Part shown: piece after piece, positions 3,476-41,322 of the stretch
Position numbering within the stretch: position 1 is the stretch's first letter
How the letters are laid out: every line of letters begins with the position of its first letter
Virus record (IMG/VR): IMGVR_UViG_3300047548_000676
Location: 1 to 43,630 of that record
Source of the DNA: a virus
Strand: one strand, 5' to 3'
Length of the DNA stretch: 43,630 bases
Notes under the pieces: model-generated
What the model was told of the DNA's origin: nothing
Database searches by the model: none
Seen by the model: the letters and a program-made list of their open reading frames with translations, nothing else
Translations under genes and position numbers: made by a program

Positions 3476-5575
3476 TCAGCCCCACAAGGTCAGTTCGTAC
3501 AGGTATCCGCGCATGTTTGTCGTGATACCGATTATCAGGAATTTCTTGCCTGCACTCATGCCAAAGCGGTTGATTTCCAGCTTCACGATCTTGCCCAGGT
3601 CAAGCACTGATGCCAGGTTTGCATCAACCCGAATCGTGACCTGGTACACGTCGCGGCGCTGTTTGTAGATGTCCAGCAGGCGCTCGGCTTCGCTGCCTGC
3701 GTTGGACTTGTTGACCAGCACCGTCTTGAATTCAAGCTCGGGGCTCAACAGGTTGGCCGTCTTGACGTTCACGTCGCTGGCCTGCGCCCGGCGGTATTCG
3801 CTGGCCGTAAATTGCTTGCGACCGGCCGGCACCGTGCTGCCCAGGTCCACCTGAACCGTGTGAATCTTCTCGTAGGCCACTTTGACGCGCCAGGCAGGCA
3901 CACCCACACCGGGATCGCGGCTTGCGATCCGCTCGATCTTGATGATGTCTGTTTTGGTGATCGTGCCCGCCTCGGTGCCGGTCGGCAGAACGATGCGGCC
4001 AATGCGAAACATGCCGCTGGCGTCCGCGCCATACCATGCGCCCACTGAAGCGCAAAGCTCATCAAGCATGTCAATGGCAGAACGGTCCTGGTTGTAGCCC
4101 GCATAAACGCCCACCTGGTAGTTGACGGCGGCGTCCAGGGCTGTCACGTCTGCCGATGAAATGTTGGTCGATGGCACCCCTGCCTTCAACAGGATGGCGT
4201 TGAACAGCTGGCCAACAGTCCGGGTGGCTCCCTGTGTCACGTCCGCCGTCACCGTGCCGGTGGGCGCAGACCCAAGGCGAATGAAGCATCCGGCTGTGGC
4301 GTCATTCCAGACCCGGTACTGCCCAGCGGCAGGGGCATTCGCTTCCATGTCCGCATGGCTGGCGTAGGCCGCGCCTGCGGTCAGCAATGCGCCCCGGTCG
4401 TAGGCCGCATTGACTGTGACCACCTGGCCGCCGCTGTGCAGCTGGAATATCAGCCGGCTGGTGTCTGTCTGCGGTGGCGCGATGTTGAACACCTGGCCAT
4501 AGACCAGTGGCTTGGGCTTGCCGGTGAGGTCATCCCCGCCTTCCAGCCCGCCCGTGCCCGCGTAGCGCACGTCCTGCAGGGGCTTGGCAATGTCCAGTTG
4601 CTTGTCGCGCACCCGGACAGTGACCTTGGACCAAGACAGGTCCACCTGCTCCATGGTGCCCGACAGGATCGTGGTCCAAGCAGGCGCAGGCATGTAGGGC
4701 AGCATCGTGCCCAAGGTAATCGTGATGCGCCGACCGGCAAAGCTGTAGTTCAGCAGGTCATCGAGCGCCCCGTCGTTGTTGACCAACACCAGCTCGCCGT
4801 AACCGATCTGGGTTGCGCCGAAAGTCCGCCCATCCCGGAAACACTCGCGCCGGATGTTCGCCGGCTGTTGGATGCGGTTGTCGTAAAACAGGAAGTCGCT
4901 GATCGCGGCGCCTTGCGTCTTGGTGTAGTTGCCAAGCAAACCCGGCTCGTACTGAGCGCCCCACGCCGTCACGCTTCCAGTGGCCGATGCACCCCCAGTC
5001 CATGACGCGCCCGCCCCCAATGCCGGAAACAAGGTCTGGTTTGCCGTGCTGGCTGCACTTGCCGATGCGGCAATGTGGACCCGCCACCAGTCGCCGCGAC
5101 TTTCGACGCCATGCGAATGCACCGTGATGGTCGATGTGCCATTCAGCGTTGCGAGCTGACTTTCTCCGGTGGCCGTGTCGAAATACAGTTCGGCCCGTCC
5201 GCCTGCACCCGCCGAGTCAAACGACAGTCGAACAGCCGGGAAGCGTGTGGCCCTGCCGATGCTGTCGCGCTTCACAAAAATTGACCAGCACATGACGCTG
5301 CCGGCGGTGTAGGTGATGCCCGTGCGCTGCAGGTAGCCGATGGCGGCGACATCGTTCTCGGTAAGCACGAACGCCGTGCTGTCGCCAATCGGTGACGCCT
5401 GGCCAGATGTAAGTGTGGTCTGAGCCTTGAGCCAATCCGCGTTGGAAAAATCCTCGCTCCATGCCAGCAGGTTGCGCCCGCCCGTGACGTAGGCCTGCGT
5501 CCCGTAGCGCAGCGTCCTAACCCCCGCGATGGCGGGGTCGTAGGCGTCAATCTCTGCAATGATGATCTGGGCCAT
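3476..5575 (-). CDS. Tail tip/baseplate hub-like protein with N-terminal carbohydrate-binding-like module (699 aa)
   Basis: Residues ~33-200 carry the module NLLAWSEDFSNADWLKAQTT ... WWRVHIAASAS ... VTAWGAQYEPG, again the phage spike-fibre carbohydrate-binding-like fold. The remaining ~500 residues hold mixed alpha/beta segments such as MLDELCASVGAWYGADASG and end in YLYELTLWG, resembling hub/tip proteins encoded directly after a tape measure. The start is 3 bp from the end of the tape-measure gene. The position directly downstream of the tape measure matches siphovirus order (tape measure, distal tail, hub). Hub assignment is inference. Confidence 0.75.
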   Translation of the reverse strand: MAQIIIAEIDAYDPAIAGVRTLRYGTQAYVTGGRNLLAWSEDFSNADWLKAQTTLTSGQASPIGDSTAFVLTENDVAAIGYLQRTGITYTAGSVMCWSIFVKRDSIGRATRFPAVRLSFDSAGAGGRAELYFDTATGESQLATLNGTSTITVHSHGVESRGDWWRVHIAASASAASTANQTLFPALGAGASWTGGASATGSVTAWGAQYEPGLLGNYTKTQGAAISDFLFYDNRIQQPANIRRECFRDGRTFGATQIGYGELVLVNNDGALDDLLNYSFAGRRITITLGTMLPYMPAPAWTTILSGTMEQVDLSWSKVTVRVRDKQLDIAKPLQDVRYAGTGGLEGGDDLTGKPKPLVYGQVFNIAPPQTDTSRLIFQLHSGGQVVTVNAAYDRGALLTAGAAYASHADMEANAPAAGQYRVWNDATAGCFIRLGSAPTGTVTADVTQGATRTVGQLFNAILLKAGVPSTNISSADVTALDAAVNYQVGVYAGYNQDRSAIDMLDELCASVGAWYGADASGMFRIGRIVLPTGTEAGTITKTDIIKIERIASRDPGVGVPAWRVKVAYEKIHTVQVDLGSTVPAGRKQFTASEYRRAQASDVNVKTANLLSPELEFKTVLVNKSNAGSEAERLLDIYKQRRDVYQVTIRVDANLASVLDLGKIVKLEINRFGMSAGKKFLIIGITTNMRGYLYELTLWG

Positions 5576-5578
5576 GCG

Positions 5579-8500
5579 TTACGCCCCCAAATCGGCGGTG
5601 TAGGTCGGCGCAACCGCTGCCAGCGATGCGCTGGTCGCAGCGTTTGCCGCCGCGCTTGCTGCAGCGCCTGCAGCTGCCGCAGCACTTTGCGCAGCTGCAA
5701 CAGCCGACTGCGAAATGCTGGCAATCGAATCGAGTTTCCCGCCGATGGACTCCAGCAGGGTGTTGCTCTTTTCGATGCCCGTGGCCATGGCCGTGGTGGC
5801 TTCTGCCGTTACCTCGGTGGGGTCAAGAATCTTGTTCAACACGGCTACCTGCGGGGCCGCCTCGATCAGCTCGGCGATGGTGGTGTCGTTTTCCTTGATG
5901 TAGTCAGCCACGCCGGCAAAGGCCGGGGCCAGGTCCAGCAGCGCGTTAAGCTGTTTGCGGCCTTCCTCGGTCTCTACGTTACGCGACTCGACAAGTGCCC
6001 GGAAGTCCTGGCGGGTAGCCAATGTGGTCGCGTCGATGCCCACGGCATTGAGCGCGTTCACGATGTCGCGGGCCATCATGCCGGCCTGCTCATCCTGACT
6101 GTAATACTCCTTCACGAACGCGGACGCCTTGGCCATCAGCGACTCGATGCCACCGGCCATGCCGATCAGCGCCTCGCGGGCATCGATGGACGACCCGGCG
6201 ATGGTCGAGAAGATGCCGCCCAGTTGGTTGATGCTGGCGCTAAATTCTTGCAGCACAATCAAGCGCCGCATGGTTTCAGCCAGTGTTTCAAAATACGTTG
6301 TAACTGTTTTTGTAACGCCAAAAATGCTTGTTGAAGTTTCTTCGGTTTTTTTTCTGAATGGCTCAAGAACGTCTGCGTATTGTGCGGAAAGCGATTCTTC
6401 GTAAGTTTGCAAGGCAGTTACGATTGCCTGCCGATCTTCTTCAGCTTTGCCGGTAACTTTAATGCGGAAATTTGTTGTTACAGAGGAAAGAACGTCACTT
6501 GGCAACTGCAAAGCTGCCGCGTAGTTTTTGATTTGTTCATAAATCTCACCAGCACCAATGCTCAAAACGTTTGCGATTTCTTTTGGCATATCTGCCCAAT
6601 CAGCCCGCCCATTTTCAAGAGTTCCACTTTTGTCGCTACGAAAATATCCACCTTTTTGACGCCATTCGGAATACATCTGGCCGGTGGCTTCTCCGCCGCC
6701 AAACGAACCGACCAATCCTTGCTCGATGACCTCCTTGGGCTTGCGACCAAAGGCCCGGTTCACCAGACCCGTAACCGCGCCAATGGCGGCGCCGACGATA
6801 GGGCCGCCAATGGCGCTGCCGACAGCCATTCCAATATCCTGGAACGTGTTGTAGCCCTTGCCGACGCTGTAGCCGCCGCTGATGGTGTTGCTGGCGAATT
6901 TGCCCAGGCCGTACCCGGCCATGGCGTTGCCGGCCATGCCAAGGTAGCTGCCCATCGCAGGGTTGGCCTGCATCCAGTCGCCCATGCCGGCCAGCGTGCT
7001 GTTGCTGCTGGTCGCCATCCAGTCGCCGGCGCGTGTCCACATGCCGGACGCGCCCGCGCTGATGGTCGAGCCGTTGAGGAAGTTCATGCCGCCGGTGATG
7101 AGGTTCGACAGGCCGCTCATGCCTCCGCCACCGCCGCCAGTCGATGCCATGGCGCTGCTAGGCATCCCGAACATTCCCATAACTCCATTAACCACGCCCA
7201 TAACTGGCTGCACAGCCAGCTTGACCACAAACGATTTGAAAGCGTTGACTATGTAATCCTTGAGTGAGTCCATCATGGACTTGCCAGATTCAAAACCTCG
7301 CATCAAAGAATCGGTCAAGGCTCGCTCAATGTTCTCGGCAGCGCGCTTCCACTCGTCCGCTGTATCCTTGGCGGCCTGCAGCACTTGGCCCTCGGCCAGC
7401 AGGTCAGCACGCACGCGCAACAGTCTGGCCTGTTCCTCAAGCGCCCTGTTGCCGCCCTGGTTGGCGGCTTCAAATTCCTTGTCGGTGGCTGTCGCACGCA
7501 GGACAGCAATTTCTCTATCTCGCACCGCCTTTTCGCCCAGGCGCAGCGCGTCGTTTTGTTCCATCAGCCGGACGTTGCCCTCGCGCAAGGCCTCCACCTC
7601 TTTCCATTCGGCCTCGGTCAGCTTTGTGCTGTGCTCGGCTACCTTGCGCTGGGCCTCCACCATGTCGCGGTTGGCGTCGATCCGCTTTTCCGTGGCGATC
7701 AGGTTTTCCAGGGACGCCACCAGTGCACGCTTTTCTGCGTCCGTCAGCTTGATGCGGCCCTGCTGCAGGTCTTGCATGACCTTCAGCGCCGTCTGTTCGG
7801 CCTTGGTCAGCTTGCCGTTGGCCTGTCCGTTGGCCAGCAAAGCGGCAGTCTGATCTTCCAGGCTGTCCATCAGCTTTTTGACCTCGGCCACCCGCTTCTG
7901 CTCGGCTTTGGTGGCTTCCTCGTTGGCGACTGCGGACTTGAGCACGGCGCCCTGAAGCGTGCCGTGCCGGGCCGTCAGCCGGGCCATTTCGTTGCTGTTC
8001 TCTGCAGCCGTCAGGCTGTGGTTCCTGAGCACGTCACGCGCCTGCAGCACGCGATCAGTGGCGCCGACCACGCTGGCCGTGAATCGGTTGTGCGCGTCCC
8101 GCGTGGCCTCGTTTTCAGCCCGCAGCGTCCGGTAGGCGACAGTCATGCCTTCCAGCCCACCTTCCTGGAAGGCCTTGGCCAGGGTCGCCACGTCGGAAAA
8201 CGCCTTGCCGATGCCCTTGACGATGTAGGCCACCTCGGCGCCGATGACGATCAGGGTCTCAAAGACCGTGCCCAGCACCCGGATGGCAATGCCGGCCAGG
8301 TCCAGCTGGCCGGTCGTGCCTTTGGTGGCCTCGCCCCAATCCTTGAAGGCTGCCGTGATCTGCTTCACCCAATCGGCCAAGCCGCCCACAATCACGGCCA
8401 GCCCGCTGGTGGCGCCGGTGGCGTTGTTGAGCTCGGTGGTGAACACCCCCACGTCGTTCTTGAGCCGGGTGAATGCGCCGCCCACCGTGTCGGGGATGCC

Positions 8501-25542: not shown

Positions 25543-25830
25543 GGCGCCCAAGAGGTGGTTGATGGCGGCGTCCGGGTCGCCTTCGTCGCCGCAGGTGTAG
25601 CAATCGACGCTGATATACCCGTATTCCGGATAAGTGTGCAACGTGAAATGGCTTTCGGCAAGTATCCAGACTGCGGTTGTCCCGTGCGGCTCGAACCGCT
25701 TGGTTGTGCACGCGACGACCGTCATCTTGCTGTGCCGGATGGCCCGCTCACACGCATTCAAGACGGCATCGTCGCCGGGGTAGGCGCGCAGCAATGCGTC
25801 AGCGTAAACGTGGCGGCCTGCGTAGTTCAT
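25363..25830 (-). CDS. speD: S-adenosylmethionine decarboxylase proenzyme (SpeD-like)
   Basis: 155 aa; residues 1-~105 align with bacterial class 1B SpeD: GRHVYAD at the N-terminus, AESHFTLHTYPEYGYISVDC, then YTCG. The self-cleaving/pyruvoyl Ser60 (E-S-H), His65 and Cys80 keep the exact 5- and 15-residue spacing of characterised enzymes. It would convert SAM to decarboxylated SAM, the aminopropyl donor. No spermidine synthase is in the window. Start overlaps the upstream ParB/methyltransferase stop (ATGA), so the two are co-translated. The last ~50 residues leave the SpeD domain and are encoded antisense to the neighbouring plus-strand gene. A pyruvoyl amino-acid decarboxylase activity is the main alternative. 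Confidence 0.9.
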   Translation of the reverse strand: MNYAGRHVYADALLRAYPGDDAVLNACERAIRHSKMTVVACTTKRFEPHGTTAVWILAESHFTLHTYPEYGYISVDCYTCGDEGDPDAAINHLLGALDASSCSIGALRRGRLPVGGHQCATAPQHISLDRPAQPDSPARVGDGGMGIKNVGAVNA

Positions 25831-27275
25831 TTGTCGTCCTCGCGGTCGGGGTGCATGAAAGCCAGAACGTCCTCGGCCTCCACCTCGCCGAAGTTGCTGG
25901 GGATGGTTTTCGGGTCGCCTTTGTAGAAGACCAGAATGTCGTCGTGAAGCCGGATTGTCCTGGCGCGCTCGGCAAGGTCGAAGCCTTCTGTCGCCAGTAT
26001 TTCGTCGCCGAACTCCCCGCCCTTAAAAAACACCATCACCTCTTGGTGCGTCCGGGCCACCTTCCGGTTTTTCATGTAGTTGCCGGCCCGCATGCTGGCG
26101 CTGCCGACCGCGTTAAGCAGGATGATTTCGTTGTAAATATGCAACCCGTTGCGGCGCATGATGCTTCGTATGTCGCCGCAAATGTCCTGATAGAAGCCGC
26201 GCCGGTCGCGCACGTTGCTCATCACCACCACTGCGAACCTGTTTGGCTTGAGCGCCTTGGCGGCTCCCGTGAACGCCGTGTCAAGAATCTTTAGGAAATC
26301 GGAGTAGCTGCCTTGGTTGCTGGCGTCCCGTGGGTCGCTGCTGTAGACCTCCAAGTCGAAATAGGGTGGGCAACTGAAAAACAGGTCTTGGCTGTTGGGG
26401 GCGAAATGAAGGCCCGCGTTCTGCCCGTCGTCGTTGATGTAATGGGCCGGCAACTTCGCGTCTTGCACACGCTTGTTGTTGAGTGCTGCTTGCTCTTTTC
26501 GCAGTTCGATGCCTGCGAACTGTCGCCCCAGCATCCCGGCCACAAAACCGAACACTGTGTCGCCCGCGAATGTGTCGAACGCCCTTCCCCCCTTTGGGCT
26601 GAACCAACGAACCACGACCTCGGCCATGACGGGATCGAGAATGCTGACCGTTCCGATTTCGGCCATCTTCTGGCTGGCTTCGGTGTTGCCGGCCTTGAAT
26701 AGCGTTTCCTCGCGGCTTTCCCCGTTGTCGCCGATGACCTCCAGCCATTTGCGCTTTCGCTCTTGCCAGTAGCCCTGGCGGGTATCGAAAACGCTGAAAG
26801 GTGGAATGCCGAACCTTTCGCCCAAGAAGCCGGGCATATCCGGGCCGTCGTCATCGCCTTCTTTGACCTCTGGCATCAGATCGGCAAGCTCGTCATCGGT
26901 GAAGCCCAGCAAGGCAAGGTCGAAACCATCCTCGGCCAGGGTTTGAATTTCGACGGCCAACATTTCCTCGTCCCACCCTGCGTTCAGTGCCAGGCGGTTG
27001 TCAGCGATCACATAGGCCCGCCGCTGCGCGTCCGTCAGCCCGTGCAGGGTGATGGTGGGCACCTCGGGCAGCTTCAACTGCTGCGACGCCAGGACGCGCC
27101 CGTGGCCCGCGATGATCGTGCCCTCCTCGTCCACCAGGACGGGGTTGGTGAATCCGAACTCTCGGATGCTGGCCGCAATCTGGGCGACCTGTTCCGCGCT
27201 GTGGGTGCGGCTGTTCCGGGCATACGGGATCAGCTCGTCCGTTCGCAGGTAGGTGATTTTCAGGGGGTTGGTCAT
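25827..27275 (-). CDS. ParB-N / DNA methyltransferase-fold protein (482 aa)
   Basis: Start at the ATG at 27275 with GAGGAATCC upstream. Residues ~5-130: ParB/sulfiredoxin-like domain (TDELIPYARNSRTHS, GHGR at 57-60, VIADNRLALNAGWDEE). Residues ~210-470: DNA-modification methyltransferase fold with motif I variant FDTFAGDTVFG (233-243), the acidic motif II FAGIEL (E257) and motif IV SCPPYF (301-306), then VVMSNVRDRRGFYQD and a THQEVMVFFKG strand. Motif IV SxPPY is typical of amino-group (N4/N6) base modifiers. It is first in the minus-strand late direction and is coupled to speD. It probably modifies phage DNA; whether it uses SAM or decarboxylated SAM is open. Confidence 0.88.
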   Translation of the reverse strand: MTNPLKITYLRTDELIPYARNSRTHSAEQVAQIAASIREFGFTNPVLVDEEGTIIAGHGRVLASQQLKLPEVPTITLHGLTDAQRRAYVIADNRLALNAGWDEEMLAVEIQTLAEDGFDLALLGFTDDELADLMPEVKEGDDDGPDMPGFLGERFGIPPFSVFDTRQGYWQERKRKWLEVIGDNGESREETLFKAGNTEASQKMAEIGTVSILDPVMAEVVVRWFSPKGGRAFDTFAGDTVFGFVAGMLGRQFAGIELRKEQAALNNKRVQDAKLPAHYINDDGQNAGLHFAPNSQDLFFSCPPYFDLEVYSSDPRDASNQGSYSDFLKILDTAFTGAAKALKPNRFAVVVMSNVRDRRGFYQDICGDIRSIMRRNGLHIYNEIILLNAVGSASMRAGNYMKNRKVARTHQEVMVFFKGGEFGDEILATEGFDLAERARTIRLHDDILVFYKGDPKTIPSNFGEVEAEDVLAFMHPDREDDK

Positions 27276-27363
27276 GGATTCCTCGCAGGTAGCTTTTCGC
27301 CGGCCCCTATTTTGCGGCAGATGTTGCGTTGCCGCAGCCGTCACTGCGAACATTTCACAGCGC

Positions 27364-29618: not shown

Positions 29619-29769
29619 GCCCCTGCAGCACCCGCAAAACATCCAGCACGGCCTGCCGGTCTTTCACCGGCACGGCCTGCAACAGCGCAGCAAACTGGTA
29701 TTCCACATCCGGCAAGTCGGTAATCTGGTCATCGGCTTGCTGCTCTGGTGCGTCTGGGCCTTGCGTCAC
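29608..29769 (-). CDS. Small protein downstream of the repressor (53 aa)
   Basis: Start chosen at GTG 29769 because GAGGGAGAAA precedes it; a longer start at TTG 29799 is possible. Product MTQGPDAPEQQADDQITDLP then a helix EYQFAALLQAVPVKDRQAVL. It overlaps the repressor 3' end by 41 bp and is co-transcribed with it. The composition is protein-like and nothing else encodes this stretch. Possibly an accessory to the repressor. Confidence 0.5.
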   Translation of the reverse strand: MTQGPDAPEQQADDQITDLPDVEYQFAALLQAVPVKDRQAVLDVLRVLQGLMR

Positions 29770-30175
29770 TTTCTCCCTCGGGCATGGTGGCCGCGCCAAT
29801 CATTCGGTCGCTCATGTAGCGCAGTAAAACTGCCTGCGCCTCGACCGGTGACTCGCGGAACAGTTTGAGTGCCAGCTCCAGGTACTCGCGTTCTGCCCGA
29901 GTGCCCGGCGCTGGGCCGCCCAAGTGGTCCTGGTCCATCCACCCGTGTGGAAGCCTGAAGGCTTCTTCCATCCTGCGGCAGGAATCTGCGCCCAGGTGCT
30001 TGCGCCCGTTGTTGACGTGCGACAGATACCTGGGACTGATGCCCGTGTGCTCGCCAAAGCGGTTCAGCAGCCCTCGCTCTGGCTCGCCACGGTCAAGCGC
30101 CCTGGTGCGGAACTGCTGAACCAGGGTCTTGTAGTTGCGCATTCGGATTTCGTTGATGTCCACGCTGGCGCTCAC
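29729..30175 (-). CDS. Phage repressor-like HTH protein (148 aa)
   Basis: The protein has a DNA-binding region at residues ~30-75 (LNRFGEHTGISPRYLSHVNN followed by GRKHLGADSCRRMEEAFRLP), an XRE-like helix-turn-helix, and a helical C-terminus without a self-cleaving peptidase domain. So it would not be RecA-cleaved like lambda CI. It is divergent from the Cro-like gene, as in a lambda-type switch. The start is GTG at 30175 with no clear SD; GTG at codon 5 or ATG at codon 12 are alternatives, and leaderless translation is possible. It is the best candidate to bind the early-promoter dyads. Confidence 0.8.
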   Translation of the reverse strand: MSASVDINEIRMRNYKTLVQQFRTRALDRGEPERGLLNRFGEHTGISPRYLSHVNNGRKHLGADSCRRMEEAFRLPHGWMDQDHLGGPAPGTRAEREYLELALKLFRESPVEAQAVLLRYMSDRMIGAATMPEGESDARPRRTRAASR

Positions 30176-30413: not shown

Positions 30414-30740
30414 ATGAAACGCAAGCCCCTGAACCTCCGCGAGTATTGGGACGCGGTGGGTACCGACAACATCAAGAAGATCGTGGAAGAGCTGGGTAGC
30501 TCGCTGGCCTACTTCCGCATGATGCGCTACGGCATCAAGCGCCCCAGCGGCCCCCAGGCGCTGCGCATCATTGACCTGGCCCGCAAGCACACGGCGCCGT
30601 ATGAGCCGGACTTGGCGCTGCTGCTGCAGGGTGTGCCACGCGCCGGTCGCAATCCGGCCCAGCCGCTACCCCCGGCTACCGAGTTTGTCCGCGCCCGCAA
30701 GCGAATGCTGAAGAAGGACGCGGAGCCGGCAGAGGCGTGA
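30414..30740 (+). CDS. Cro-like early regulator (108 aa)
   Basis: The ATG at 30414 has AAGGAAAC upstream; an upstream in-frame start has none. MKRKPLNLREYWDAVGTDNI then KKIVEELGSSLAYFRMMRYG and SGPQALRIIDLARKHT, a Cro/CI-type small HTH pattern. The C-terminus is basic (RARKRMLKKD). Divergent from the repressor, with the dyad covering its promoter, so it is the likely lytic switch partner. Confidence 0.75.
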   Translation: MKRKPLNLREYWDAVGTDNIKKIVEELGSSLAYFRMMRYGIKRPSGPQALRIIDLARKHTAPYEPDLALLLQGVPRAGRNPAQPLPPATEFVRARKRMLKKDAEPAEA

Positions 30741-30768: not shown

Positions 30769-30796
30769 TTGTGCTACCCCATGGGTCGCTTATGAT
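30769..30796 (+). promoter_or_regulatory. Early promoter with repressor-type dyad in front of the c4-like RNA (site 4)
   Basis: TTGTGC (30769-30774), 16 bp, TATGAT (30791-30796). The dyad TGCTACC-CCATG-GGTCGCT lies at 30772-30790, directly between the two boxes. Transcription would start near 30803 at the first base of the structured leader. Dyad right half is weaker than at site 1. Confidence 0.68.
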
Positions 30797-30802
30797 GGTG
30801 CC

Positions 30803-30888
30803 ATCGCTTGGCGGCGATGTTGAAGTAAGCCCTAGCCGGGACTCTGCAGGTTACTTCCCTGTCCGCCAACGCCAGCGCAATGCTGGCG
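30803..30888 (+). ncRNA. c4-like antisense RNA leader
   Basis: Nested stems: TTGGCGG/CCGCCAA (30808-30814, 30863-30869), GAAGTAA/TTACTTC (30822-30828, 30851-30857) and a 3' hairpin CGCCAGC-GCAAT-GCTGGCG (30870-30888). The central loop exposes GCCCTAG (30829-30835) and GGACTCT (30839-30845). These are complementary to CTAGGGC (30899-30905) and AGAGTCT (30889-30895) just downstream, before the replication gene. This is the layout of phage P1/P7 c4 RNA, whose two loop segments pair with the leader of the next gene. Matching to the c4 family is from memory of its architecture. Confidence 0.68.
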
Positions 30889-30910
30889 AGAGTCTCGACT
30901 AGGGCTTTTT
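30889..30910 (+). terminator. Attenuator/terminator and c4-type target site
   Basis: The 3' arm ending CTAGGGC is followed by TTTTT (30906-30910). If the leader arm 30829-30845 pairs here instead of staying in the c4 fold, a rho-independent terminator forms in front of the replication gene. The two folds exclude each other, so the site can act in cis (attenuation) or in trans (antisense pairing). Confidence 0.6.
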
Positions 30911-30925
30911 GTTTGGAAGAAAGCC

Positions 30926-31738
30926 GTGCACTACTACCCCCACCACATCGGGGATTTCACGCGAGAGACAGCGCAGCTGACTGACAGGCAGGCCATGTCC
31001 TACCTGCGGCTGATCTGGCTCTACTACGAAACCGAAACCCCCCTGCCAGACCGGCCCGACCTGCTCGCCTTCAAGATTGGAGGAGACGAGAAGGAGGTCG
31101 CTTTGATCCTCGAGTCGTACTTCAAGCGCGACGGTGACCAGTGGCGACACACCCGATGCGACAAGGAAATCCATACCTACCATCGGCGCTCAGAATCGGC
31201 CAGAAACGGCGCAAAGGTGAGGTGGAGCAATGCCGGAGCAATGCCGCAGCATAGCCAAAGCAGTGCGGACGCACCGAAAAGTGATGCTAACCAAGAACCA
31301 AGAACCAAGAACCAAGAACCACCAGTGAAACAGAGAGAGCGCACGCCTACCGGCTCGCGCCTTCCTGCCGACTGGTCACTGCCTGACGATTGGGCTGAAT
31401 GGGCACGGCAAGAGCGTCCCGACCTGATCCCTCAGCAGACAGCTCAACGTTTTGCCGACTACTGGCATGGCGTAGCCGGAGCCAAGGGCCGCAAAGCAGA
31501 CTGGCTGGCAACTTGGAGAAATTGGGTTCGTGGTGAGCGTGCAACAAACACGTCCAGGACGGCTACCCCAAAGGTCGCCATGCCCATGACCTTTGCCGAA
31601 CGCGACGAACAGGCGCGGCGCAAACGCTGGGAGGAAATGACCGGGCGCAAGTGGCCCGAGTCTGGCCAGCCAGAAACCATCGACATCACCCCAGACGTTT
31701 TGAGGATCGACCATGAGCCTGCCAGCCAAAGCGATTGA
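30926..31738 (+). CDS. Phage replication protein with DUF1376 domain (O-like)
   Basis: 270 aa from GTG 30926 (GGAAGAAAG upstream). Residues ~1-95 match DUF1376 (YYPHHIGDFTRETAQLTDRQ ... AMSYLRLIWLYYETETPLPD), found at the N-terminus of phage replication initiators. The middle is a low-complexity linker (NQEPRTKNQEP) encoded by 7-bp DNA repeats. The C-terminal part (LPADWSLPDDWAEWARQERP ... KADWLATWRNWVRGE) is the usual DNA-binding/initiator end. Followed with overlap by a second replication-type gene. Expression is likely controlled by the leader RNA upstream. Confidence 0.85.
   Translation: MHYYPHHIGDFTRETAQLTDRQAMSYLRLIWLYYETETPLPDRPDLLAFKIGGDEKEVALILESYFKRDGDQWRHTRCDKEIHTYHRRSESARNGAKVRWSNAGAMPQHSQSSADAPKSDANQEPRTKNQEPPVKQRERTPTGSRLPADWSLPDDWAEWARQERPDLIPQQTAQRFADYWHGVAGAKGRKADWLATWRNWVRGERATNTSRTATPKVAMPMTFAERDEQARRKRWEEMTGRKWPESGQPETIDITPDVLRIDHEPASQSD
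31289..31320. repeat. 7-bp tandem repeats, possible replication origin iterons
   Basis: aaccaag is repeated four times head to tail plus aacc. It lies inside the replication initiator gene, the place where lambdoid phages keep their origin. The repeat also encodes the NQEPRTK linker. Origin function is inferred; the AT content is locally raised. Confidence 0.6.
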
Positions 31739-41246: not shown

Positions 41247-41322
41247 TGGGGTGGCTGGTGGGGAACGATCCCACGACCCTCAGATCCACAATCTGATGCT
41301 CTACCACTGAGCTACAGCCACC
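41247..41322 (-). tRNA. tRNA-His (anticodon GTG), unusual T-loop
   Basis: On the minus strand: extra G at -1, acceptor GTGGCTG/CAGCCAC, D-arm GCTC-AGTGGTA-GAGC, anticodon stem TCAGA/TCTGA with loop TTGTGGA (anticodon GTG), T-arm GTGGG/CCCAC, discriminator C73 and encoded CCA. G-1 opposite C73 is the tRNA-His identity mark. The T-loop reads ATCGTTC instead of TTCGAAT, so positions 54 and 58 are A and T rather than T and A. It lies after the lysis genes in the late direction. Confidence 0.92.

What the first reader, a model, noticed from the sequence alone, without database searches (positions are those of the whole stretch)
30803..30910. c4-like antisense RNA with two mutually exclusive folds before the replication gene
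The leader folds into nested stems that expose two heptamers. Both heptamers are complementary to the two segments 30889-30895 and 30899-30905, the latter followed by TTTTT. Pairing makes a terminator; the c4 fold leaves it open. In P1/P7 such RNA controls an antirepressor; here the target is a DUF1376 replication protein, so the RNA would set replication itself and could give incompatibility or superinfection control in trans.
Basis: partly seen in the sequence, partly recalled or inferred. Interest (0 to 1): 0.68.

Follow-up and report, generated by a model that had tools for sequence, protein, structure and literature searches.

The report
Phage RNA switch before replication gene
Just before its replication gene this virus of bacteria carries a small folded RNA that can either switch transcription off or let it through; about a hundred uncultured phages share it, and it looks like a compact, previously uncatalogued cousin of the RNA "immunity" switches of phages P1 and P4.

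Summary
The leader at 30802-30910 folds into a terminator (-56.9 kcal/mol, z -4.7) and its 5' part into an alternative fold. Four helices form two pseudoknots (97.4% of cells paired) and the alternative terminator is equally well supported (97.3%); 0 of 500 shuffles reach either. No Rfam family matches it, C4 included. Its layout is nevertheless that of the P1 C4/a1b1 and P4 seqA/CI leaders: a hairpin loop a1, then b1, then a hairpin with b' in its loop, then a'. Here they are fused into one ~105-nt unit whose terminator encloses the b'/a' part. Members have their own sigma-70-like promoter, often follow a small Cro-like gene, and precede unrelated replication initiators. Best reading: a co-transcriptional on/off attenuator of the early replication operon, probably tunable in trans by other copies of the same RNA. 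The trans step (immunity or copy-number sensing) is inferred; only 2 of 30 carrier contigs have a tyrosine integrase.

The parts
30769..30796 (+). sigma-70-like promoter: TTGTGC (30769-30774), 16-nt spacer, TATGAT (30791-30796); predicted RNA start at about 30802
   Evidence: read; most other members have a TATAGT/TATGAT/TAAAAT-type -10 element about 6-12 nt before the first helix, many with TTGNNN about 17 nt further up
30802..30819 (+). helix H1: 5' hairpin CATCGC / GCGATG; its loop is a1 (TTGGCGG, 30808-30814, the last G shared with H1)
   Evidence: covaries in 50-member alignment, 100% paired
30822..30828 (+). b1 (GAAGTAA), 5' arm of helix H3
   Evidence: 5 of 5 counted pairs of H3 have changes on both sides, 97.6% paired; 21 different versions in 50 members
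30827..30845 (+). 5' strand of the terminator (AAGCCCTAGCCGGGACTCT); single-stranded in the pseudoknot fold
   Evidence: terminator helices 98.4% and 97.3% paired, 14 of 18 pairs with changes on both sides
30847..30861 (+). helix H4: hairpin CAGG [TTACTTC] CCTG; the loop (30851-30857) is b', the 3' arm of H3
   Evidence: H4 4 of 4 pairs with changes on both sides
30863..30869 (+). a' (CCGCCAA), pairs with the H1 loop a1 to form helix H2
   Evidence: 99.0% paired; compensated versions TTGGCAG/CTGCCAA, TTGGTCG/CGACCAA, TTGACGG/CCGTCAA, TTGGCCG/CGGCCAA
30870..30888 (+). helix H5: hairpin CGCCAGC / GCTGGCG inside the terminator
   Evidence: 3 of 4 pairs with changes on both sides
30889..30910 (+). 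3' strand of the terminator (30889-30907) and T run (30906-30910)
30915..30923 (+). Shine-Dalgarno-like GGAAGAAAG
   Evidence: read
30926..31738 (+). regulated gene: DUF1376 / primosomal-type replication protein, GTG start, 270 aa
   Evidence: PF07120 1e-16; PHROG primosomal protein 2e-30
30414..30740 (+). small ORF directly upstream, in the place of cro; no family match in the window, but many other members have a Cro/YdaS-like HTH gene here
29729..30175 (-). divergent ORF with a weak helix-turn-helix match, candidate repressor
   Evidence: PF01381 E 0.006, below cut-off

Best explanation
A self-contained RNA attenuator of the C4 / P4-CI kind that sets transcription of the phage's early replication operon. 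Transcription starts at H1 (inferred from the promoter). As the RNA emerges, a1 pairs with a' (H2) and b1 with b' (H3), crossing the local hairpins H1 and H4 as two pseudoknots (pairings shown by covariation). In that state b1, fixed at the base of the terminator's 5' strand, is tied to b' in the H4 loop, and the long terminator helix cannot close (steric inference); polymerase reads on into the replication gene. If H2/H3 do not hold, the terminator helix forms around H4 and H5 and transcription stops at the T run. The ~105-nt stopped RNA then displays a1, b1, b' and a' unpaired. The likely next step, as in P4, is that such RNAs, or RNAs from a resident or sister genome, pair in trans with a1/b1 of a nascent leader, release its own b'/a', and so provoke termination: a dosage- and specificity-dependent brake on replication. 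Shown: family, folds, promoter position, association with replication genes. Inferred: exclusivity, switching and the trans step.
For: Covariation of both folds: pseudoknot fold 97.4% cells paired, 16 of 22 pairs with double changes, covariation score 0.431 against 0.153 shuffled and at most 0.065 when slid; terminator fold 97.3%, 23 of 29 pairs, 0.402 against 0.140; 0 of 500 shuffles each. A pattern confined to the terminator strand and H4 gave 64 hits, and the hits read carry the flanking H1, H2 and terminator partners. Members begin right after a promoter; 84 of 86 first downstream ORFs listed start within 20 nt of the T run. Downstream proteins are unrelated kinds of replication initiator, DnaD-like loader or primosomal protein in 9 of 10 tested, the tenth ParB-like. 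The order a1 loop, b1, b' hairpin, a' is that of P1 and P4 leaders, where the RNA stops expression of replication genes by premature termination (P4; PMC4825925). b1/b' varies most among the switching helices yet stays complementary: 21 versions in 50, 97.6% self-pairing against 64.6% between members, while a1/a' hardly changes. One phage contig holds three copies with different a1, b1 and terminator sequences, as expected if copies must not interfere. Folding order favours the open fold first.
Against: No expression data. Steric exclusion is argued, not modelled; folding tools here do not handle pseudoknots. No separate processed RNA fold like C4 (outer stem plus two hairpins) is present. Only 2 of 30 carrier contigs have a tyrosine integrase and none a serine recombinase, and none of 770 bacterial genomes searched nor the 80 DUF1376 loci from bacterial genomes carry it, so a role in lysogen immunity is not supported for most carriers. 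The terminator's only target in the window is itself. Some members precede HNH endonuclease, ParB-like or unknown genes.
Confidence: 0.7

Rival explanations
1. Purely cis-acting attenuator or riboswitch: the double pseudoknot is an aptamer that senses a small molecule, a protein or the speed of transcription, and the terminator is its expression platform; nothing acts in trans.
For: Terminator/antiterminator layout with own promoter, 5' fold complete before the terminator; most carriers lack an integrase, so immunity has no obvious use.
Against: No sizeable invariant unpaired core: apart from a few single bases (G30846, U30851, U30862) the constant positions lie in paired elements. The best-separated helix is hypervariable b1/b', which suits pairing specificity better than ligand binding. 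Layout matches trans-acting P1/P4 RNAs.
Confidence: 0.22
2. An RNA that protects polymerase or recruits an antitermination factor (HK022 put-like or nut-like site) between the cro-like gene and the replication gene, with the terminator being the one it overcomes.
For: Position between a cro-like gene and O-type replication genes is where lambda has nutR/tR1 (general knowledge).
Against: The terminator's 5' strand lies inside the structured element and covaries with the 3' strand, and each member has its own promoter at the RNA start, which a put/nut site does not need.
Confidence: 0.05
3. An ordinary long intrinsic terminator; the alternative pairings are chance.
For: The terminator fold is by far the most stable and the nested fold alone is not better than shuffled sequence.
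Against: H1-H4 covary across 50 distinct members and far exceed shuffles and slides.
Confidence: 0.02

Closest known systems
Phage P4 immunity leader: seqA (Rfam isrK RF01394 and c4-a1b1 RF03163) and CI RNA (Rfam C4 RF01695)
   Same: Order: hairpin with a1 in its loop, b1, intrinsic terminator, hairpin with b' in its loop, a' in the 3' flank; promoter just upstream; controls a replication operon (PMC4825925).
   Different: In P4 the terminator is a separate hairpin between b1 and the CI RNA, which lies more than 100 nt downstream with its own outer stem and second hairpin. Here everything is in ~105 nt and the terminator encloses the b'/a' part. Models do not recognise each other.
Phage P1/P7 C4 antisense RNA and its a1/b1 targets
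   Same: a1 UUUGACAG hairpin loop and b1 UGUUAGUG; hairpin CUGG..CCAG with b' in the loop, then a' CUGUCAA; members with TTGGCAG/CTGCCAA have almost the same a1/a' letters as the Rfam consensus.
   Different: C4 is processed from the leader and its a2/b2 targets lie by the ribosome site of icd/ant; no enclosing terminator; target is an antirepressor (PMC5320573).
IsrK of Gifsy-1 (RF01394)
   Same: Short leader RNA ended at an intrinsic terminator, with read-through giving the mRNA; described as a structural homologue of P4 SeqA (PMC4825925).
   Different: IsrK activates translation of the read-through mRNA in trans; different sequence, no b'/a' hairpin in the same unit.
int-alpA RNA (RF02996)
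   Same: Occupies the same slot before DUF1376 in other phages; L016 shows the same kind of upstream gene and promoter as window-type members.
   Different: Different fold; its loop pairs with the region by the start codon, no enclosing terminator. None of 30 carriers of the window type also has it.

Membership tests
Rfam C4 (RF01695) | covariance-model score at or above 45 bits | tested here: not met
   no match in window or in ten other members' loci at E up to 5; the same search finds P1 (68.8 bits) and P4 (74.9 bits)
Rfam C4 (RF01695) | long outer stem holding two hairpins | tested here: not met
   alignment A2 and its structures contain no such stem
Rfam C4 (RF01695) | hairpin with b' in the loop and a' in its 3' flank, complementary to b1 and a1 | tested here: met
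   helices H2, H3, H4 covary; same order in P1 and P4
Rfam C4 (RF01695) | discrete RNA of about 77 nt processed by RNase P and acting in trans | not testable with these tools
   no RNA data; definition from PMC5320573
Rfam c4-a1b1 (RF03163) and isrK (RF01394) | covariance-model score above the cut-off | tested here: not met
   no match in window or ten members; P1 and P4 leaders are found by these models (isrK in P1 and c4-a1b1 in P4 below cut-off)
Rfam c4-a1b1 (RF03163) and isrK (RF01394) | hairpin with a1 loop followed by b1, upstream of an intrinsic terminator | tested here: met
   the terminator here encloses b'/a' instead of preceding it
P4-type RNA immunity | RNA-dependent premature termination in the leader of the replication operon | tested here: inconclusive
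   terminator, alternative fold and replication genes present; dependence on RNA in trans untested
P4-type RNA immunity | temperate element | tested here: inconclusive
   integrase PF00589 in 2 of 30 carriers, not in the window; no PF00239; many contigs may be incomplete
int-alpA RNA (RF02996) | covariance-model match | tested here: not met
Riboswitch | conserved unpaired ligand-binding core | tested here: inconclusive
   few invariant unpaired bases; ligand binding cannot be tested here

The most novel reading that the evidence does not exclude
A widespread RNA-only copy-number or superinfection sensor of phages, many of them apparently non-integrating: each genome's terminated leader acts in trans on sister or incoming genomes of the same b1/b' specificity, throttling the replication operon; one phage can carry several mutually insulated copies. 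The same pseudoknot scaffold is exchanged between unrelated phages and coupled to different outputs (terminator, or ribosome-site blocking).
Probability: 0.3. Interest if true: 0.82.

Novelty: new variant of a known kind. Interest (0 to 1): 0.62.

Why it matters
It extends P1/P4-type RNA immunity, known from a few enterobacterial elements, to about a hundred uncultured phages and puts it before several unrelated types of replication gene. The family is absent from Rfam 15 and unannotated in deposited genomes (two Manatee Spring phages carry it). The compact design, with complete covariation data, gives a small and testable system for how an RNA made by one genome could stop transcription on another, and for how such specificities diverge.

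Tried and rejected
C4 membership by covariance model: rejected. Close DNA relatives in named phages and plasmids: none for the window, two metagenomic records for a consensus. First descriptor scans for 'hairpin plus complementary terminator' were too loose and were replaced by pattern scans and a covariance model. Prophage carriers among GTDB genomes: none in 80 DUF1376 loci, 5 handles, 369 and 401 genomes (the last two with strict filters, no positive control genome). A second target for the terminator strand elsewhere in the window: none. Reverse-strand model hits at 25-37 bits are the mirror image of the terminator stem and were ignored. A first count of a1/a' versions was faulty and was redone, where a few rows still picked a wrong partner. 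Literature on this RNA or int-alpA function: not found in the held library; the paper that described int-alpA is not held.

Full report
The window is a whole IMG/VR virus record of 43,630 bases: a tailed phage with terminase, portal, tape measure, endolysin, Erf and SSB genes. The gene after the feature is a DUF1376 / primosomal-type replication protein. Upstream lie a small ORF in the place of cro and a divergent ORF with a weak helix-turn-helix match.

Observation. The complete leader folds as a terminator with z -4.7; the 5' part alone is not unusual by energy. A fold of growing transcripts, without pseudoknots, has the nested fold as the minimum up to about nt 92 and the terminator from about nt 96.

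Relatives. A search with the DUF1376 protein gave viral contigs whose leaders fall into several types. L050, L266, L279, L285 and L286 have the window's architecture with different letters; L107 and L135 came from a 14-base pattern. A pattern on a' and the start of the target strand gave more than 60 further members. A pattern limited to the terminator strand and H4 gave 64 hits, and those read have the flanking H1, H2 and terminator partners, with H2 in compensated versions. In all, 91 distinct sequences were collected.

Structure. On an alignment of 50 distinct members (A2), helices H1-H5 have 97.4% of cells paired, 16 of 22 pairs with changes on both sides, and a covariation score of 0.431 against 0.153 for shuffles and at most 0.065 for slid partners. 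The terminator structure has 97.3% paired and 23 of 29 pairs with double changes. H1 with H2, and H4 with H3, cross each other, so the element is a double pseudoknot and not just nested stems. The members were partly chosen by patterns that fix a' letters, so H2 variation in A2 is understated; supply it. The shuffle control ignores relatedness, but 21 versions of b1 in 50 members are hard to obtain by descent alone.

Relation to known RNAs. Rfam 15 has no family for it. Reading the P1 and P4 leaders next to it shows the same four elements in the same order: a hairpin whose loop is a1 (P1 UUUGACAG, P4 CGUGAGAA, here UUGGCGG), then b1, then a hairpin whose loop is b', then a' (P1 CUGUCAA, P4 UUCUCAC, here CCGCCAA). 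In P1 and P4 these are spread over about 200 nt, with a separate terminator hairpin after b1 and a free-standing C4/CI RNA. Here they are fused and the terminator helix wraps around the b'/a' part. Whether this is common descent or convergence cannot be decided from layout, although the a1/a' letters of members with TTGGCAG/CTGCCAA nearly equal the C4 consensus. P4 CI RNA is known to stop expression of P4 replication genes by premature termination (PMC4825925).

Context. Most members have a sigma-70-like promoter immediately upstream, and many follow a small Cro/YdaS-like gene. The first downstream ORF starts within 20 nt of the T run in 84 of 86 listed cases. Nine of ten downstream proteins tested are replication initiation, O-like, DnaD-like or primosomal families of unrelated sequence; one is ParB-like. 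Others are HNH endonucleases or small unknowns. Window, L107 and L135 share the RNA at 82-84% but nothing else by blastn over the stretches compared, so the element moves as a module.

Mechanism. The helices needed to keep the terminator open (H2, H3) use only the start of the transcript; the terminator needs its end. H3 joins the base of the terminator's 5' strand to a loop that would sit at the far end of an 18-pair helix, so I infer that H3 and the terminator exclude each other. In the terminated RNA a1, b1, b' and a' are all unpaired or in loops, which would suit pairing in trans. b1/b' is the most variable of the switching helices and is rarely complementary between members (fully in 14% of pairs), whereas a1/a' is nearly universal (90%). 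Three copies in one contig differ in all elements. These facts favour RNA-RNA specificity over a ligand. Against a plain lysogen-immunity role, only 2 of 30 carrier contigs hold a tyrosine integrase, none a serine recombinase, and no bacterial genome searched has the RNA (weak negatives, because no positive control genome was available). A dosage-dependent brake on replication fits both facts but is inference.

Verdict. Real, well supported, not in Rfam; works like P4/C4 leaders, but not a member of the Rfam families tested; a new variant of a known kind.

Noticed in passing
L045:4870-5000, L057:4865-5000, L063:326-456, L064:4865-5000, L068:4867-5000; L043 similar: A sister leader type before DUF1376: the same a1/b1...b'/a' scaffold with covarying pairs (GTGAGAA/TTCTCAC, GTGGAAA/TTTCCAC, GTGGCG/TGCCAC), but the intervening strand CAGTCTCTTTCGG pairs with the Shine-Dalgarno region CCGAAGGAGATTG instead of a terminator; a1 equals that of phage P4 in L045, L063 and L064.
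   Followed up: partly
L006, L013, L034, L039 (leaders just before the DUF1376 start) and similar leaders in many other DUF1376 loci: int-alpA RNA (RF02996) lies directly before DUF1376, with a loop complementary to the start-codon region that varies together with its target; suggests that int-alpA is also an autoregulatory leader.
   Followed up: partly
L067 and L075 (about 4890-5000), L273 (about 330-470), L052/L053, L056/L070: Further leader types before DUF1376 with long hairpins whose loops look complementary to downstream terminator or start-region segments.
   Followed up: no
L463:1004-1110 (-), 3713-3814 (-), 7965-8068 (+): One phage contig with three copies of the RNA of different pairing specificity; copies 1 and 3 precede HNH endonuclease genes; copy 1 has a P4-type hairpin CGTGAGAA immediately upstream.
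   Followed up: partly
MW202462 and MW202544 (L459:914-1014, L460:7965-8065): Deposited Manatee Spring phage genomes carry the RNA and, after it, an unannotated replication-type gene; an ORF on the opposite strand is annotated instead.
   Followed up: partly
window 25827-27353 (-): ParB-like domain fused to a DNA methyltransferase (PHROG 498); closest named relative in Pseudomonas phage ZRG1 at 63% identity.
   Followed up: no
window 41250-41321 (-): tRNA gene in the phage.
   Followed up: no
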